Origin: a bacterium
GTDB lineage: Bacteria; Desulfobacterota; DSWW01
Assembly (NCBI GenBank): GCA_030609865.1
Contig: JAUWSZ010000018.1
Location: 1-13,341 of the forward strand
DNA: 13,341 nucleotides
Reading direction: 5' to 3'
A model generated the notes under the pieces. It worked only from the letters and a program-made list of their open reading frames with translations, was not told the origin of the DNA and did not search any database. This document shows, one piece after another, positions 519 through 12,017 of the stretch; position 1 is the stretch's first letter; every line of letters begins with the position of its first letter. Both the position numbers and the translations under genes were made by a program.

Positions 519-752
519 ATGTCGAGCAACGAGGCCTTTGCGACTAAGATCCCGCGAGAGCTCAAGCGGGCCCTCGACGAAGTCTGTAGAAAGCATGGAC
601 TGCGGAAGAGCTTCGTCGTCGAAAGTGCGCTGCGTGAGAAGATCGAAGATCTCCTTGACACCTATGATCTCAAAGAGGCCATCTCGGAGGGTGACAGCTT
701 TCGGCCCTGGAGCGAAGGCAAGAAGGTGTTGCGGAAAAAGGGTCGGGCATGA
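519..752 (+). CDS. Ribbon-helix-helix antitoxin of a RelE/ParE-type toxin-antitoxin pair
   Basis: This is a 77-residue protein. Residues 6-45 fit a ribbon-helix-helix DNA-binding domain: a short beta strand (AFATKIPREL), a helix (ALDEVCRKHGL), a turn with RKS, and a second helix (FVVESALREKIEDLL). The charged C-terminal part (from about residue 48, with SFRPWSEGKK) is the likely toxin-wrapping tail. The start is set by AGAAGGAG at 503-510, eight bases upstream. The stop overlaps the toxin start (ATGA at 749-752), so the two are translationally coupled. The expected role is to neutralise the toxin and, with it, repress the operon through the palindrome at 472-487. The exact subfamily is not resolved from the sequence. 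Confidence 0.85.
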   Translation: MSSNEAFATKIPRELKRALDEVCRKHGLRKSFVVESALREKIEDLLDTYDLKEAISEGDSFRPWSEGKKVLRKKGRA

Positions 753-5485: not shown

Positions 5486-5866
5486 ATGCGTGAAGAAATC
5501 GTCAACAACCTGAAGCAGATCGAAAACGATCTGGATACAGCCGACCTGCTCCGGAAGCATAAGAAGTACTCGGACAGTGTTTTCCACAGTCAGCAGGCCG
5601 CAGAAAAGGCTCTAAAGACTCTCTACCTTCACAAGAAGCGGGAGATCCCTTTCACGCACAACCTGGTCAAGATTGTCCGGGAACTCGGGCTGTCGAAGGC
5701 TGTTCTCAAAGCGGCCAGAGAACTGACGCCGGACTACATCACGACACGGTACGTTGATGCTGCGAACGGAGTCCCGGCTGATATGTATGACAAGGAATCA
5801 GCGGATCTGCATTACGGATACGCTGAGGAGATCGTCGAGTGCGTAAAAAAACGATTGAGAAAATAA
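5486..5866 (+). CDS. HEPN domain protein, putative toxin (RNase) of a HEPN/MNT pair
   Basis: A 126-residue all-helical protein. KYSDSVFHSQQAAEKALKTL (27-46) is the signature second helix of HEPN proteins of the COG2250 type. The R-x(4-6)-H motif that forms the RNase site in HEPN toxins is present as R52-EIPFT-H58, in its usual place after the first helical pair. In known HEPN/MNT modules the HEPN protein cleaves RNA, and its nucleotidyltransferase partner neutralises it by adding AMP groups. The start is set by AGGGGG (5471-5476), nine bases upstream. The next gene begins 28 bases inside this one. Some HEPN/MNT pairs of this type have not been shown to be toxic, so the toxin role is inferred. 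Confidence 0.85.
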   Translation: MREEIVNNLKQIENDLDTADLLRKHKKYSDSVFHSQQAAEKALKTLYLHKKREIPFTHNLVKIVRELGLSKAVLKAARELTPDYITTRYVDAANGVPADMYDKESADLHYGYAEEIVECVKKRLRK

Positions 5867-6210
5867 CCAGGTTCCTGGAGAGCATCGACGAATTGCAGGT
5901 GGAGAAGTTCGTTCTGTTTGGGTCCAGGGTGCGGGGCGATCATCTGAAGACGAGCGATCTGGACATCATCCTGGTTTCCAAGGACTTCGAAGGTGTCAAC
6001 TTCCCCGAGAGACCGAACCTTTTCTACGGCAAATGGGAGGGAGATCCGGATCTGGACTTCATTTGCTATACTCCAGGGGAAATTGCCAAGAAGCTGTCTT
6101 ACAAGGGATTGGTCTCTACCGCCCTGGAAGAAGGCATTGTCGTGGAGTGCAGGCCGGGCGGTTCTCGGGTTGCGAGGCAGGCAAAGAGGCGAAAACGGGC
6201 TGCCCGGTGA
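5839..6210 (+). CDS. MNT-type minimal nucleotidyltransferase, putative antitoxin partner of the HEPN protein
   Basis: A 123-residue protein starting at GTG (5839), with GAGGAG eight bases before it inside the HEPN gene. FVLFGSRVRGDHLKTSDLDI contains the GS-x10-D-x-D catalytic motif (G28, S29, D40, D42) of minimal polymerase-beta-fold nucleotidyltransferases. A probable third acidic residue is D73 in DLDFICYTPGE. In characterised MntA/HepT pairs this enzyme transfers AMP from ATP to the HEPN partner. The C-terminal tail, from about residue 106, is strongly basic (RVARQAKRRKRAAR), which is unusual for this small family and might be a nucleic-acid contact. All visible active-site residues are intact. 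Confidence 0.86.
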   Translation: MRKKTIEKITRFLESIDELQVEKFVLFGSRVRGDHLKTSDLDIILVSKDFEGVNFPERPNLFYGKWEGDPDLDFICYTPGEIAKKLSYKGLVSTALEEGIVVECRPGGSRVARQAKRRKRAAR

Positions 6211-6725: not shown

Positions 6726-9700
6726 ATGGAAGATCAACCTTCTTCTGAAGACAGTGGCTCGCAGTCCGGCACGGGGGTAAGAAGGAAGCGGGTCAAGCGG
6801 TCCCGAAGAAAGCGTCGACCCGCCTGGCGCCGTGCGCTCGACAAGTGGACGGCCTTTGACGCCTCCGACGTGGCCGGGGTGTTGGGCCTCCTGATCGAGG
6901 GGCTGCTCATCGCCATGCTCGTGCTGGCGCCCCTGCCCCTGGGCTCGGTCGCCCCGTGGGCGCGCGCGATCCTCTTCCTTGGTGCTTGCCTTCTCCTGTG
7001 CCTCTGGGTCGTGAGATCTTCCCTCTTGGGAAGGCTCGAGATCGTGAGGACCCCGGTCTGGTTCTTTGTGGCCGGCTATCTTCTGATTCTGTGTCTCCAG
7101 TTGATTCCCCTGCCCCACTTCCTTCTCTCCGGCGTCTCGCCAAAGACTGCGGAACTCTACGCCGGGCTCGTGCCGGGTTACCCGGGGCCCTCCGGCATGA
7201 TGTCCGTCACGATGAACCCCCATGCCACCGTCCAGGAGATCTTCCGGGTACTCACGTTTGCGATCGTCCTCTTCGTCTTTCTGAACCATTTTCGGGACCG
7301 GCGCCAGATCGCGAGAGTCCTCTGGGCCCTGGTCGCGGTCGGCCTGTTCCAGGCCTTCTACGGCCTGGCCGAGAAGTTCTCCGGGAACCCCCACATCTTC
7401 TGGATCGTTCCTCGCGACACGGTGAGCGTTCACGGCACGTATTACAACCGCAACCACTTCGCGGGCCTGATGGAGATGCTCACCCCCGCGGTCTTCGGCT
7501 TCTTTCTGGCCTCGCTCGCCACCCGGAGCCGATCCTGGAGGTCCACCCAGCAGACCCTGTTCCAGCGGATCGAGCGTGCCCTGTCCAAGGGGAGGGGGTA
7601 CCGGAACCTGCTCCTGGGGATGGTCGTGGCGGCCATGTTTCTCGCCGGGGCGCTCTCCCTGTCCCGGGGAGGCGCCACGGGGCTGCTGGTCGGGTTTCTC
7701 GTCCTTTTCAGCTTCACCCGGGGCAGGGGAGAGAAGAGGGAAAGGATCGTCCGGGTTTTCGTCCTCGTCCTGCTGATGGCCCTGGGCCTCCTGTTCTACC
7801 GGGGCGTGGAAGGGATCGTCGACCGGTTCGAGCAACTCGCCGAGGAGAATTCCTCCTGGGAGGGCAGGCAAGCGCTGCGCCAGGCAGGGGCCCGCATGTT
7901 CGGGGACTTTCCGCTGCTGGGCGTGGGTGGGGGGGCCTTCAAGTACGTGTTTCCCGCCTACCAGCCGGAGCGCTACGGGAACAAGGTGGCCCGCTATCTC
8001 CACAACGACTGGCTCCAGGTGGCCTGTGAGACCGGCGTGCTGGGAGCGGCCGTTGCCTACGGGGGCATCGGGGTCTTCCTAGTCGTTCTGTTCCGAGGTA
8101 TGCGAAGGCGGCAGGACCCGTACTGCCGGCTGATATTTGCCGGGGCCTTTGCGGGCGTCGTCGCCATGCTGCTTCACAGCCTGGTCGACTTCAACCTGTA
8201 CATGGTGACCGCCAACGGCCTGGTCTTTACGGTCCTGCTCGGGATCTGCCACACGGCTGCCCACATGAAAGGGCGCTCCCAGGGTTCTGACGAGACCTTC
8301 CGGGTGAGGGTGATCGAGATCCGTGGGGTGGGGCTTCGTGTCGGGGTGCCCGTGATTGTGCTCGCGGCGTGCCTGGCGGGATTGATTCTTCCGGCCAGGG
8401 CCGGGATGGCGGACATCGCCTTCAACCGGCACCGGACCTGGGCCCGGGGCACCCCGGAGCTCTACTTCTTCTGGGAATGCGTCCGTCCGGACGAGGAGGA
8501 GGCCGGGGAGGCGCTGGCGCGGGCCCTCGAGCTTCAGCCCGGCTCGCCGGAGTACAACTTCGCCCGGGGGCTCGACCAGGTGGAATCGATCAGGGAGGAA
8601 ATCCTGTCGGCGGCCCGGCAGAGGGCCCGCGCAGTGTACCTTCAAGAACCCTTTCTGAGCCCTGCCGATGATACGGTCCGGGCCCTCGCCCTGGACATAT
8701 CCCAGGCGGTCAAGGAGGATACGGCCCTCCCGGACGAGGAGAGCGAGGAGTTTCAGGGATTGGTGTCGACGTTCACCGACCCGGCGAGGAGGCAGATGCA
8801 GAGAGAGATCCGGGCCGATCTCGATGTGGCGGAGCGATCCCATAGGAAGGCGATGCGGATTGCGCCCACCGTGCCCTGGTACCGGATGAGCCTTGCCATG
8901 GCCTACGCCGATCTGCTCGGTCCCGGGCCTGCGCTCGCCGCGGAGAGGCCGAAGGTGGACGCGTTGGTCGAGGAGGCCCTTGCCCTGGCCCCGGGGCGGC
9001 CGGCAAGCCTGTTCCCGGCGGCCCGTTACTATGCGAGGGGGATCCTGGAGGAGGCGGGCCGGCTCGACGCGGGGCGGGAGAGGGATCGGCAGGTGCTGGC
9101 CATGTTCCGGAAGGCCCTGCACGCAGAGCCTGGCAGCTACGCCTATGCCACGTATGAGTTCCTCGTGGGGGAGGCAAGGGCCGATCCCGGGGTCCTCTTC
9201 GAGATTACCCCGGACACGCTCGGGGCTCAGCGGAAGCTCCAGCGGTTTTTCAGGAAGAGGGGCATGTGGCCCGAGGCCCTCGAGGCGACGGAGAACGTGC
9301 TCGCGCTCCTTGGAATCGATCCCCGGGGCCCGGGCATCCCGGACATGCAGCCTGACTCGCTCGAGTTCAAGCTTGGCAGCATGACGACCAAGCAGCAGGT
9401 GCGTACCCTGCAGAGGTTGGGGATGATCGAGCCCTGGCGCGGTGCGTTGGAAAGGTACGGGTCTTTCGTCACGATTCAGTGCGGTGGCTTCCTCGAGAGA
9501 GCCTCCCGGTACGCGAGCCTGGGAAGGCTTGCAGAGGCGATGAAGTGGTGTACCGATTGCCTCGACAAGGACTGGAACCACCTGGATGCCTTCTTGACGA
9601 TGACCGAGATCGAGCTGCTCCCCGGTGCCATCGCGGGCAGGGACGGCGAGGCCGATCTGTTCAAGGAACTCCTGCGCCTGGAGCAAGCCCACCCCGAACT

Positions 9701-10571
9701 GGGCCGGGCAGACTGTGAACGACTCGGCGATATCCTCACGCGGCTGACCCCCGAGACGCCTGTCGACTATCTGGAGGCGAGGCTGGTCGAGGCGGTCATG
9801 AAGCGGGGTTGCGGCGATCCGGAAGGGGCTGCGAGGATCTTGAAGGCCCTGCTTCTGGTCGATGCCAAGCCGTTTGTCTACTGGCATCAGAGGCACGTGC
9901 TTCACTACCACCTGGGCAAATCCCTGGAGATGTCCGGATCGGGCCGGGAGGCCGCCGCCGAGTACGAGAGGGCCCTGGAGCTTGCGCCTGCCCACAGGTC
10001 CTCGCTGGAACGGCTCGTGGCCTTGGGGCTGGGCGACGAGGTGCTGGGAGAGAGGGAGGACGCGCCCGACCCGGCCGTGGACGACGAGACGGTGCCGGAG
10101 GAGGGGCCGGAAACGCCGACCGTGAGGGAGCGGTTGCAGGGAATCACCCCGGAGAAGTCATGGGGCATAGACCTCGAGGGCAAGGTCAGGTTCCTGGGGG
10201 TCACGCTCGAGGGGTCGGAAGGCCCATCCGGCTTCACGGCGAGGTACTTCTGGGAAGTCACTGCCGACCTGGACCCGAGGGACTACTACGCTGGGTACCG
10301 ATACTTCGATGCGGAAGGAAACCGCATCTACCAGGAATGGAGGAACCTGTTTCCTGATCCCGAGAAATACGGAGAGAATCTGGACGGCGGCATCGGGACC
10401 GTCCTCACGCACTGGCACTACCTGCCCTTCCCTCGCGAGATACCCGGGGAGGTTCGAATTCTGGTCGGGAAGAAGCGGAAGGGCAAGCTCACTCACCGGC
10501 CCCTACAATCGATTTCCAGGGATCGATGGCTGATCCTGGGCCTCCCCGCCGAGGGCACAACACTTAATTAA
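6726..10571 (+). CDS. O-antigen ligase (Wzy_C) membrane protein fused to TPRs and a C-terminal beta-rich domain
   Basis: A 1281-residue protein. Residues 1-45 are a very basic cytosolic tail (RRKRVKRSRRKRRPAWRR). From about 50 to 520 there are roughly a dozen hydrophobic segments with the Wzy_C/O-antigen ligase signatures: GTYYNRNHFAG (237-247), ALSLSRGG (309-316), FPLLGVGGGAF (about 395-405) and YLHNDWLQ (424-431), plus a last span after LVDFNLYM. Residues about 560-1100 are soluble, with TPR-like helices such as AMRIAPTVPWYRMSLAMAYA, ALVEEALALAPGRPASLFPA, ALHAEPGSYAYAT and EYERALELAPAHRSSL. The final 170 residues look like a beta sandwich with W-containing strands (FTARYFWEVTADL, FDAEGNRIYQEWRNL, PREIPGEVRILVGKK). 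These enzymes transfer or polymerise lipid-linked glycans on the periplasmic face of the inner membrane. The start has only a weak ribosome site. Confidence 0.85.
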   Translation: MEDQPSSEDSGSQSGTGVRRKRVKRSRRKRRPAWRRALDKWTAFDASDVAGVLGLLIEGLLIAMLVLAPLPLGSVAPWARAILFLGACLLLCLWVVRSSLLGRLEIVRTPVWFFVAGYLLILCLQLIPLPHFLLSGVSPKTAELYAGLVPGYPGPSGMMSVTMNPHATVQEIFRVLTFAIVLFVFLNHFRDRRQIARVLWALVAVGLFQAFYGLAEKFSGNPHIFWIVPRDTVSVHGTYYNRNHFAGLMEMLTPAVFGFFLASLATRSRSWRSTQQTLFQRIERALSKGRGYRNLLLGMVVAAMFLAGALSLSRGGATGLLVGFLVLFSFTRGRGEKRERIVRVFVLVLLMALGLLFYRGVEGIVDRFEQLAEENSSWEGRQALRQAGARMFGDFPLLGVGGGAFKYVFPAYQPERYGNKVARYLHNDWLQVACETGVLGAAVAYGGIGVFLVVLFRGMRRRQDPYCRLIFAGAFAGVVAMLLHSLVDFNLYMVTANGLVFTVLLGICHTAAHMKGRSQGSDETFRVRVIEIRGVGLRVGVPVIVLAACLAGLILPARAGMADIAFNRHRTWARGTPELYFFWECVRPDEEEAGEALARALELQPGSPEYNFARGLDQVESIREEILSAARQRARAVYLQEPFLSPADDTVRALALDISQAVKEDTALPDEESEEFQGLVSTFTDPARRQMQREIRADLDVAERSHRKAMRIAPTVPWYRMSLAMAYADLLGPGPALAAERPKVDALVEEALALAPGRPASLFPAARYYARGILEEAGRLDAGRERDRQVLAMFRKALHAEPGSYAYATYEFLVGEARADPGVLFEITPDTLGAQRKLQRFFRKRGMWPEALEATENVLALLGIDPRGPGIPDMQPDSLEFKLGSMTTKQQVRTLQRLGMIEPWRGALERYGSFVTIQCGGFLERASRYASLGRLAEAMKWCTDCLDKDWNHLDAFLTMTEIELLPGAIAGRDGEADLFKELLRLEQAHPELGRADCERLGDILTRLTPETPVDYLEARLVEAVMKRGCGDPEGAARILKALLLVDAKPFVYWHQRHVLHYHLGKSLEMSGSGREAAAEYERALELAPAHRSSLERLVALGLGDEVLGEREDAPDPAVDDETVPEEGPETPTVRERLQGITPEKSWGIDLEGKVRFLGVTLEGSEGPSGFTARYFWEVTADLDPRDYYAGYRYFDAEGNRIYQEWRNLFPDPEKYGENLDGGIGTVLTHWHYLPFPREIPGEVRILVGKKRKGKLTHRPLQSISRDRWLILGLPAEGTTLN

Positions 10572-10643: not shown

Positions 10644-10672
10644 TTGACAACCAATGCCGGGTGTATTAATTT
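10644..10672 (+). promoter_or_regulatory. Predicted sigma-70 promoter of the MarR gene
   Basis: A perfect TTGACA at 10644-10649 is followed after 17 bases by TAATTT at 10667-10672. The start site would fall within the palindrome at 10673-10689. The region 10572-10690 is markedly AT-rich compared with the GC-rich flanks. I see no gene in 10572-10705 and no clear terminator for the preceding gene. Confidence 0.6.
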
Positions 10673-10689
10673 ATTTGTAAGATACAAAT
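10673..10689. promoter_or_regulatory. MarR-type operator palindrome ATTTGTA-N3-TACAAAT, copy 1
   Basis: ATTTGTA-AGA-TACAAAT has two perfect 7-base arms. It directly follows the -10 box and overlaps the expected start of transcription, ending just before the GGAG ribosome site of the MarR gene. A bound dimer here would block its own promoter. The same arms recur at 11208-11224. Confidence 0.65.
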
Positions 10690-10705
10690 TTTGGAGACAG
10701 CAAGT

Positions 10706-11191
10706 ATGGTTCACGCACCCTTAGAGTTTGACACGATCGTTCAGGAGTTTGGGGAACTCCTCTCGGTGATGATTCGATCGTTCGTAGCCTTCGAGAGGAG
10801 TGAGATTTTCTGTTGTGGGGTCACCATGCCGCAGTGCTCAACGATCCTGGGCATCGGAGAAAAAGGGACGATGACCATGAATGCCTTGAGCGAATGGATG
10901 AGCCTGGCGACGAGCACGATGACGAGGATCACGGACAATCTGGTAAGGGACGGATATGTCGCACGCGCCCAGGATCTTCAAGACCGGCGGGTCGTGCAGG
11001 TGTCCCTGACCGAAAAGGGAGAGCAGCTCTTCCAGGCCATCAATCAGATCTACGATGAGTACCACCGAAAGATCGTGGAGAACATCCCGGCCGAGGAACT
11101 GCACCAGGTTGTGGAATCCCTGACCATGCTGATCGAGGCGATCAAGAAAACGCCGCTGCTGGAGAATCAAGGTTGCGCTGAAGAGAGCTAA
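10706..11191 (+). CDS. MarR-family transcriptional regulator
   Basis: A 161-residue winged-helix regulator. ATG at 10706 is preferred, nine bases after GGAG (10693-10696); a TTG at 10691 would add five residues but overlaps that ribosome site. Residues about 58-83 form the helix-turn-helix (MNALSEWMSLATSTMTRITD). The wing carries the family's D-R-R signature (LQDRRVVQVSLTEKG, about 91-105), and helices at both ends form the dimer interface. A cysteine group, C36-C37 and C44 (FCCGVTMPQCSTIL), lies at the start of the DNA-binding core, where it could sense oxidants, electrophiles or metals; this is inference. Matching palindromes upstream (10673) and downstream (11208) suggest it controls itself and the two following small genes. 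Confidence 0.9.
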   Translation: MVHAPLEFDTIVQEFGELLSVMIRSFVAFERSEIFCCGVTMPQCSTILGIGEKGTMTMNALSEWMSLATSTMTRITDNLVRDGYVARAQDLQDRRVVQVSLTEKGEQLFQAINQIYDEYHRKIVENIPAEELHQVVESLTMLIEAIKKTPLLENQGCAEES

Positions 11192-11207
11192 AAAAAATTT
11201 CGATATT

Positions 11208-11271
11208 ATTTGTATATTACAAATTACGCAGACTACAAATTAAGTACCATACAAATTGTGCAGGCACAAAC
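11208..11271. promoter_or_regulatory. Tandem array of TACAAAT half-sites upstream of the small membrane-protein genes
   Basis: The array begins with a full palindrome, ATTTGTA-TAT-TACAAAT (11208-11224), with the same arms as the site in front of the MarR gene. Further exact TACAAAT half-sites start at 11234 and 11250, exactly 16 bases apart, and a degenerate CACAAAC starts at 11265. The last is part of another inverted repeat, TTGTGC-AG-GCACAA (11256-11269). The left arms of the middle sites are degenerate. The layout predicts cooperative binding of several MarR dimers between the regulator and the following genes. A promoter probably lies within it, but I cannot assign its boxes. Confidence 0.6.
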
Positions 11272-11308
11272 TAAAGATCAACCAACAACCTGAAAGGAGG
11301 TAAAGGTC

Positions 11309-11503
11309 ATGCAAGCAAACGCGGGTGCACTGAGGAAGAACGTAATGCCGACCCTCCCTCGGATTCTGGAAGCAGCACGAGAGAAGCTGACGAGGGAGAG
11401 GGTGGCGGAGGCTGGGGTCATTGCCGCGACCGTAGCGGCCATCCTGATTCTTTCCACTGCGCTCCAGCTCGGGCTGGAGCGGTACACGATCGCAGGAATG
11501 TAA
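11309..11503 (+). CDS. Small single-span membrane protein A (MQAN family, unrecognised)
   Basis: A 64-residue protein with a strong AAAGGAGG ribosome site at 11293-11300, eight bases before ATG. Residues 1-33 are charged and probably amphipathic (LPRILEAAREKLTRERVAE). Residues 35-56 form one membrane span (AGVIAATVAAILILSTALQL), and it ends ERYTIAGM. I do not recognise the family. The protein and its leader resemble those of the next gene: both start MQAN, have EA-x-R before the span, AG at its start, and a TI-x-G segment after it. The gene follows the array of MarR-type sites, so regulation by that protein is likely. Its size and single span suggest a regulatory or stress-response membrane peptide; no activity can be assigned. 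Confidence 0.75.
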   Translation: MQANAGALRKNVMPTLPRILEAAREKLTRERVAEAGVIAATVAAILILSTALQLGLERYTIAGM

Positions 11504-11538
11504 TTCGCAGTATCGTGTCCTGAAAGGAGGTTATCAAT

Positions 11539-11763
11539 ATGCAGGCGAACACGGATGTGTTGACCAACGAGGTACAGGTCCTTCCCCTGGACTGGGAAGC
11601 GACCCGATGCTGGGCACAGAGCAGGCTACAATCGGCAGGGATCGCGGTAGCCGGCTTTGCAGCCTTTCTGGGGCTCGTGGGCCTGGTTGAGTATGCTATG
11701 TACCAGGCGGTCGAGAGCTGGACGATCAGCGGGGTGGGAGCCTCGGTCTTCGGCTACTTCTGA
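11539..11763 (+). CDS. Small single-span membrane protein B, paralogue of A
   Basis: A 74-residue protein beginning MQANTDVLTNEV. Its ribosome site and context (CCTGAAAGGAGGT at 11519-11531) are identical to those of the preceding gene, and the two genes are 35 bases apart. A single membrane span covers about 33-55 (AGIAVAGFAAFLGLVGLVEY). The C-terminus after ESWTISG adds ten residues, GASVFGYF-like, absent from protein A. Similarity to protein A is moderate and spread over the whole length, so the duplication is not recent. No known family was recognised. It lies in the same probable transcript as protein A, so the two may assemble together in the membrane. Confidence 0.75.
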   Translation: MQANTDVLTNEVQVLPLDWEATRCWAQSRLQSAGIAVAGFAAFLGLVGLVEYAMYQAVESWTISGVGASVFGYF

Positions 11764-11853: not shown

Positions 11854-11899
11854 TCGGGGACAGCCACCGATCTCAATGTAGTTAAGTGGCTGTCCCCGA
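11854..11899. repeat. Strong hairpin with 14-bp perfect arms (TCGGGGACAGCCAC / GTGGCTGTCCCCGA)
   Basis: The left arm (11854-11867) and right arm (11886-11899) are perfect complements across an 18-base centre. This looks like a REP/BIME-type palindrome of the 'GTGGCTGTCCCC' class, often scattered by REP-associated transposases; none is encoded in the window. It might also serve as a transcription barrier after the small membrane-protein genes. Confidence 0.65.
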
Positions 11900-11991: not shown

Positions 11992-12017
11992 GAGATCGGT
12001 GGCTGTCCCCGATCTTC
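11992..12017. repeat. Third arm of the GTGGCTGTCCCC family, with its own small hairpin
   Basis: Bases 11999-12017 repeat 11886-11904 exactly, and 11992-12011 is a perfect 20-base inverted copy of 11855-11874. It also contains AGATCGG (11993-11999) and CCGATCT (12009-12015), a 7-bp stem. It ends five bases past the stop of the minus-strand lipoprotein gene, so it could act as that gene's 3' hairpin, although no T-run follows. Confidence 0.6.

What the first reader, a model, noticed from the sequence alone, without database searches (positions are those of the whole stretch)
10644..11763. Self-contained MarR switch controlling a pair of tiny paralogous membrane proteins
Seen: a MarR gene with a TTGACA promoter whose start region carries ATTTGTA-N3-TACAAAT, the same palindrome again immediately after the gene, and then two genes for 64- and 74-residue single-span proteins that resemble each other. 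The whole unit is an AT-rich island at its control regions between GC-rich neighbours. Known: MarR proteins usually repress themselves and adjacent genes through such palindromes and are relieved by small ligands or cysteine oxidation. Inference: the small proteins are the effectors of this switch, perhaps membrane-stress or transport-modulating peptides. I do not recognise this combination as a described system.
Basis: partly seen in the sequence, partly recalled or inferred. Interest (0 to 1): 0.7.

Follow-up and report, generated by a model that had tools for sequence, protein, structure and literature searches.

The report
Local switch for small membrane proteins
A repressor gene carries its own likely on/off DNA sites on both sides and appears to control two tiny membrane proteins from an unnamed family whose relatives sit behind several different switches in related bacteria; what the tiny proteins do is not yet known.

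Summary
A MarR gene (10706-11191) has ATTTGTA-N3-TACAAAT over its promoter (10673-10689) and again just after its stop (11208-11224), then two short genes (64 and 74 aa) with strong ribosome sites. All three have homologues, and the unit is syntenic in one MAG (by its name probably from coral skeleton). In that 8.9 Mb genome the palindrome, allowing one mismatch, occurs at both ends of this MarR gene and at two other places, so "self-contained" is well supported. The two small proteins belong to one family (profile comparison E 1.2e-6) with no convincing Pfam, NCBIfam or PHROG match. The MarR-centred picture is too narrow: the MAG encodes at least 13 members, and only this locus has MarR. Another pair follows a TetR gene with the same layout and its own palindrome on both sides, found nowhere else in that genome. 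A third member is divergent from a TetR gene that precedes an RND pump. Four members, in two genomes, have sigma-54-like promoter elements. Matches came from 3 of 395 genomes sampled from the phylum. Most likely: lineage-specific single-span membrane effectors, each with its own inducible promoter; here MarR represses itself and the pair until a signal frees it. Regulation and peptide effect are inferred.

The parts
10644..10672 (+). probable promoter of the MarR gene: TTGACA-17 bp-TAATTT
   Evidence: Sequence; TTGACA-17-TACTTT at the same place in the syntenic locus L001. Not listed by the consensus scanner.
10673..10689 (.). operator 1, ATTTGTA-AGA-TACAAAT, where the transcription start is expected
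   Evidence: Perfect 7-3-7 palindrome; its L001 counterpart ATTTGCAAGATACAAAT is the only exact match to ATTTGNANNNTACAAAT in the 8.9 Mb genome G001.
10706..11191 (+). MarR-family regulator, 161 aa; Cys44 in 29 of 29 and Cys36 in 25 of 29 close relatives looked at
   Evidence: Pfam 46.2 bits; 57 proteins in the homologue search, its own included; dN/dS 0.14 against L001; cysteines in the 29 close rows of A2.
11208..11224 (.). operator 2, ATTTGTA-TAT-TACAAAT, starting 17 bases past the end of the MarR stop codon
   Evidence: AATTGTAGGATACAAAT at the same place in L001.
11218..11256 (+). three TACAAAT half-sites 16 bp apart (11218, 11234, 11250); the first is the right arm of operator 2
   Evidence: in L001 TACAAAT at 9910 and 9926, and TGCAAAT 16 bp further.
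11295..11300 (+). Shine-Dalgarno AGGAGG of small gene 1 (in CCTGAAAGGAGGT)
   Evidence: Sequence.
11309..11503 (+). small gene 1, 64 aa, one predicted membrane helix
   Evidence: 36 proteins in the homologue search, its own included, 30 of them 64 aa long; hydropathy peak at residues 37-55; AlphaFold helix 19-63, mean pLDDT 72.2.
11525..11530 (+). Shine-Dalgarno AGGAGG of small gene 2 (same CCTGAAAGGAGGT leader)
   Evidence: Sequence.
11539..11763 (+). small gene 2, 74 aa, one predicted membrane helix, paralogue of small gene 1
   Evidence: 28 homologues; profile match to family 1; dN/dS 0.24; AlphaFold helix 19-64, mean pLDDT 64.6.

Best explanation
This is a one-locus repressor switch whose output is a pair of single-span membrane proteins. 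Without signal, the MarR dimer sits on operator 1 (over its own start site) and on operator 2 plus the phased half-sites in front of the small genes, holding both down. A signal (unknown; a hydrophobic ligand or oxidation at the conserved Cys36/Cys44 are the candidates) frees the DNA, and the strong ribosome sites then give a burst of both small proteins, which insert in the membrane as one helix and probably modulate the membrane or a membrane protein. The pair is a plug-in output: the same family is found in related genomes behind TetR repressors and sigma-54-like promoters. Shown: genes, palindromes, their near-confinement, the family and its other contexts. Inferred: binding, repression, signal, membrane topology, and the effect of the proteins.
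For: Palindromes and phased half-sites, conserved in L001. Operator nearly confined: in G001 one exact and one one-mismatch place, both at this locus, plus two lone one-mismatch places elsewhere; reversed control pattern none. Same layout with an unrelated repressor: TetR gene 9340-9933 of L002, ATATACCGATGAGTATAT before and ATATACCGATTGGTATCT after it, then two small genes; a pattern made from these two sites finds only them in G001 at up to one mismatch. First genes of both pairs form one clade, support 99/97, in a 26-row tree. Sigma-54-like elements TGGCA[CT]N5TTGC[TA]: 6 in 14 loci (201,908 bases, both strands) against 0.4 expected, 4 of them starting 61-94 bp upstream of family genes in the right orientation; the motif was seen by eye first and counted afterwards.
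Against: No binding or expression data. No promoter-like site on the plus strand in front of the small genes. dN/dS of small gene 1 against L001 is only 0.68. MarR is beside one of 14 upstream regions, and no regulator was assigned for most of the others. The second genes of the MarR and TetR pairs are not resolved as one clade. AlphaFold models are of modest confidence. Operator conservation rests on two sequences, and the L001 operators are not perfect palindromes. Two nearest relatives, G002 and G003, have family members but no close MarR orthologue.
Confidence: 0.62

Rival explanations
1. The small proteins are AcrZ-like modulators: each binds and tunes a particular membrane transporter that is induced by the same signal.
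For: One helix, no recognised enzyme domain; one member (L031) is divergent from a TetR gene followed by an RND pump gene (ACR_tran 937 bits); AcrZ and WatS1 tune RND pumps (PMC10710835, passages).
Against: No transporter recognised next to the MarR pair or next to most other members among the neighbours looked at; a pair rather than one modulator.
Confidence: 0.3
2. The small proteins are inducible membrane-depolarising or dormancy peptides (TisB/YohP-like; TisB recalled), lowering metabolism under stress.
For: Small, hydrophobic, apparently tightly controlled; YohP of E. coli lowers membrane potential and fluidity (PMC12719787, abstract).
Against: Longer than those peptides, with a conserved charged N-terminal part; strong ribosome sites; no antisense RNA family in the window by Rfam at gathering scores, though that does not exclude one.
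Confidence: 0.2
3. Operator 2 serves something else (for example the end of the MarR transcript or a roadblock), and the small genes are simply co-transcribed from the MarR promoter.
For: No promoter-like site on the plus strand behind operator 2; genes are in line with the MarR gene.
Against: The TetR pair repeats the operator at nearly the same distance after the stop; the phased half-sites persist in L001. Even so the genes would be under MarR through operator 1.
Confidence: 0.2
4. The small ORFs are spurious.
For: No named family; short; dN/dS of small 1 only 0.68 in one comparison.
Against: Homologues of nearly constant length with conserved residues; dN/dS 0.24 for small 2 and 0.17-0.33 in six of six comparisons among other members, not all independent.
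Confidence: 0.02

Closest known systems
E. coli marRAB operon
   Same: MarR dimer represses its own operon from two operator sites; PMC3920692 (passages) puts site I between -35 and -10 and site II near the translation start.
   Different: No AraC-type activator (marA) here; the second operator lies after the MarR gene; output is two membrane helices.
FabT (MarR repressor of fatty acid synthesis)
   Same: Second-best NCBIfam match of the MarR protein, 56.6 bits; acts on palindromes in promoters (PMC9083066, passages).
   Different: Far below the family cut-off of 200; no fab genes recognised at the locus; operator nearly confined to one locus.
BilQ (MarR regulator)
   Same: Best NCBIfam match, 65.3 bits.
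   Different: Cut-off 125 not reached; target genes of BilQ were not looked for.
AcrZ / WatS1 small membrane modulators of RND pumps
   Same: Small membrane proteins that tune pumps (PMC10710835, passages).
   Different: No family match found; no pump recognised beside the MarR pair; here the family is expanded in one lineage.
TetR-controlled small pair in the same lineage
   Same: Operator, regulator, operator, two family genes; first genes are one clade.
   Different: Unrelated regulator and unrelated operator.

Membership tests
MarR family | winged-helix MarR domain above curated cut-off | tested here: met
   PF01047 46.2 bits, cut-off 24.6
MarR family | binds a palindrome in its own promoter | tested here: inconclusive
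   Palindrome present and conserved in L001; binding not tested
FabT equivalog | NCBIfam score at least 200 | tested here: not met
   56.6 bits
BilQ equivalog | NCBIfam score at least 125 | tested here: not met
   65.3 bits
marRAB operon | AraC-type MarA gene after the MarR gene | tested here: not met
   Next genes are the two small ORFs, no Pfam match above cut-off
Any named small-protein family (Pfam, NCBIfam, PHROGs, PADLOC) | convincing profile match shared by members | tested here: not met
   Of 42 members scanned: Pfam 5 families by 1 member each, best E 0.0089; PHROGs 3 families by 1 member each, best E 0.0044, one called holin at 0.0085; NCBIfam 2 families by 1 member each, RseA 0.0017 and DrpB 0.0056. 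PADLOC none for the two window proteins
AcrZ-like modulator | physical binding to a transporter | not testable with these tools
   -
Type I toxin (Hok/TisB kind, recalled) | antisense RNA antitoxin and toxicity | not tested
   Rfam gave nothing in the window at gathering scores; toxicity needs an experiment

The most novel reading that the evidence does not exclude
A lineage-specific family of single-span membrane proteins serves as a generic output module: copies have been placed separately behind MarR, TetR and sigma-54 control, with two unrelated repressors converging on the same operator-gene-operator-pair layout, so that one kind of membrane response answers many signals.
Probability: 0.5. 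Interest if true: 0.65.

Novelty: new variant of a known kind. Interest (0 to 1): 0.5.

Why it matters
It gives a testable handle on an unnamed small-membrane-protein family: the operators say which regulator probably controls which copy, and two unrelated repressors around the same kind of pair suggest that the pair, not the regulator, is the conserved unit. If true it shows how a lineage spreads one membrane response across many signals.

Tried and rejected
Rejected: spurious ORFs (homologues); phage or plasmid cargo (alignments of MarR, small 1 and small 2 gave no confirmed relative in viral contigs; no tblastn match of either small protein in plasmids, or phages; MarR was not searched in the last two collections); FabT or BilQ membership; PADLOC match of MarR to CARF proteins, weak (best E 0.0014) and over its HTH region.

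Led nowhere: a PDB search with the small family gave 6 hits, best a designed repeat protein at E 0.0012; no Foldseek search was run because I judged that a single helix would give meaningless matches. MarR relatives in three of 99 genomes besides the orthologue (G032, G037, G097, about 1e-30) have no family gene within the fetched 2.7-3.4 kb, and neither do the eleven weaker MarR loci of G001 (L004-L014, 2.2-3.4 kb each). Host phylum not identified: the MAG record title says only 'bacterium', and the paper was read by passages. The MarR dN/dS used a one-base offset and is void; one search replaces it.

Literature: searches (listings only) showed no title or abstract start describing a MarR or TetR gene with such a pair; some searches were for the MAG, FabT, marRAB and known small proteins. 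This covers open-licence PMC papers only.

Changed at the self-check: number of 64-aa homologues (30 of 36), the count of other MarR loci, position of the downstream repeat, RND and window toxin annotations now profile-tested, NCBIfam run on all 42 members.

Full report
OBSERVATION. The window holds a MarR gene at 10706-11191 (Pfam PF01047, 46.2 bits against a cut-off of 24.6) and two short genes at 11309-11503 and 11539-11763, each behind CCTGAAAGGAGGT. ATTTGTA-N3-TACAAAT stands at 10673-10689 and 11208-11224. These are the only perfect 7-N3-7 inverted repeats in the window; the number itself is ordinary (1.12 expected in Markov sequences), the shared arms on both sides of one gene are not. 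TACAAAT repeats at 11218, 11234 and 11250, exactly 16 bp apart, so operator 2 opens an array. The control regions are 35.1% and 31.6% GC in a 61.3% GC window. TTGACA-17-TAATTT directly abuts operator 1, so a start site would fall within it (sequence; inference). The consensus scanner did not list this promoter and found none on the plus strand for the small genes.

ARE THE GENES REAL. The homologue searches gave 57 proteins for MarR and 36 for small protein 1 at E up to 1, the window's own included in both, and 28 for small protein 2. Against the syntenic locus dN/dS is 0.14 for MarR, 0.24 for small 2 and a weak 0.68 for small 1. Six of six comparisons among other members, not all independent, gave 0.17-0.33. 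Small 1 and small 2 show no BLASTP alignment to each other, but their family profiles match (hhalign 90.7%, E 1.2e-6) and intermediate members join them.

A SYNTENIC UNIT. A scan of genome contigs with small 1 found two loci, both in one MAG, JANQFG, 'bacterium isolate PL23a_bin.76'. The name fits the Porites lutea skeleton MAGs of PMC9868349, which names PL23a_bin.125 (passages); that it is the same study is inference. L001 has the same order as the window: Wzy_C/TPR gene, MarR, small 1, small 2, with ATTTGCAAGATACAAAT before MarR, AATTGTAGGATACAAAT after it, and half-sites 16 bp apart. In that genome (G001, 8.9 Mb) the MarR operator pattern with up to one mismatch hits these two places and two lone places elsewhere.

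THE SAME LAYOUT WITH AN UNRELATED REPRESSOR. L002 has a TetR gene (TetR_N and TetR_C_13) followed by two family genes. ATATACCGATGAGTATAT lies before it and ATATACCGATTGGTATCT after it; the pattern made from these two sites matches nothing else in G001 at up to one mismatch. The second TetR site begins 18 bases past the end of the stop codon, MarR's operator 2 begins 17 past. The first genes of the two pairs form one clade (99/97); the second genes are unresolved (26 rows).

THE WIDER FAMILY. A joint profile found 13 matches in G001, 2 in G003, 1 in G002 and none in the other 294 of 297 relatives searched at E up to 1e-4. A wider profile matched the same 3 of 395 genomes drawn from the phylum, with 15, 3 and 2 matches, four of these weak. 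Only up to 20 and 15 candidates per genome were scored in these calls, so copy numbers are lower bounds. Of the 16 genes (14 upstream regions), I found a regulator gene directly adjacent in four: MarR, TetR (L002), a divergent TetR (L031) and a PAS/sigma-54 activator (L028) (20 neighbours were profile-tested). The L031 TetR gene is followed by an RND pump gene. The L031 palindrome is exact only there, with one one-mismatch site elsewhere. Two of the three exact GTTACCN3SGTAAC places in G001 are upstream of the L028 gene. TGGCA[CT]N5TTGC[TA], a pattern I chose after seeing the upstream sequences, occurs 6 times in the 14 loci against 0.4 expected, and 4 of these are 61-94 bp upstream of family genes (L027, L028, L048, L052); the other two (in L029 and L050) are not, and the window has none. 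Three family genes next to mutS (L046, L050, L051) carry TGACAC-N3-GCGTCA-like elements twice. In G001 both exact matches are there and one one-mismatch match is upstream of the L031 gene, though the reversed control pattern was as frequent overall (13 against 14). For the other regions no regulator was assigned. G002 and G003 lack a close MarR orthologue (best 3.6e-16 and 4.6e-14).

WHAT THE PROTEINS ARE. One hydrophobic stretch (residues 37-55 of small 1; 32-50 of small 2). Net charge before and after it does not clearly orient the helix, so topology is open. AlphaFold gives a single helix from about residue 19 to 63 after a poorly ordered start, mean pLDDT 72.2 and 64.6. Profile libraries gave only isolated weak hits: Pfam, PHROGs and NCBIfam, each family matched by 1 of 42 members. 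MarR has Cys44 in 29 of 29 and Cys36 in 25 of 29 close relatives in alignment A2, a selection from the 57, which makes thiol sensing possible, not shown.

READING. The best account is a self-contained repressor switch with a pair of one-helix membrane proteins as output, part of a family that one lineage has wired to several regulators. Regulation is inferred from anatomy. The effect of the proteins (tuning a transporter, altering the membrane, or lowering metabolism as YohP does in E. coli, PMC12719787, abstract) cannot be decided here.

Noticed in passing
window 519-752 and 749-1006: Two overlapping short ORFs; the second is a ParE-type toxin (PF05016 31.6 bits), the first has no Pfam match but looks like its antitoxin.
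   Followed up: partly
window 5486-5866 and 5839-6210: Overlapping HEPN (84.8 bits) and nucleotidyltransferase (44.1 bits) ORFs, the usual make-up of a HEPN/MNT toxin-antitoxin pair (pairing recalled).
   Followed up: partly
L046 7476-7730, L050 7706-7963, L051 1032-1286: Family gene beside mutS with two TTGACAC-N3-GCGTCA-like elements in three genomes, and a GC hairpin just before its ribosome site; a one-mismatch copy lies upstream of the L031 family gene. Regulator unknown.
   Followed up: partly
L028 9338-9796: Family gene with a sigma-54-like element and GTTACC-N3-(G/C)GTAAC repeats directly after a PAS/sigma-54 activator gene.
   Followed up: partly
L027 2791, L028 9529, L048 6740: The sigma-54-like elements start at a nearly constant 61-62 bp before the family gene in three of the four cases (94 bp in L052).
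   Followed up: no
window 11855-11898: Inverted repeat CGGGGACAGCCAC ... GTGGCTGTCCCCG after the small genes, with a further copy of one arm near 12000; looks like a dispersed intergenic repeat.
   Followed up: no
window 6726-10571: 1281-aa protein with an O-antigen ligase (Wzy_C) domain and TPRs, also the upstream neighbour in L001.
   Followed up: partly
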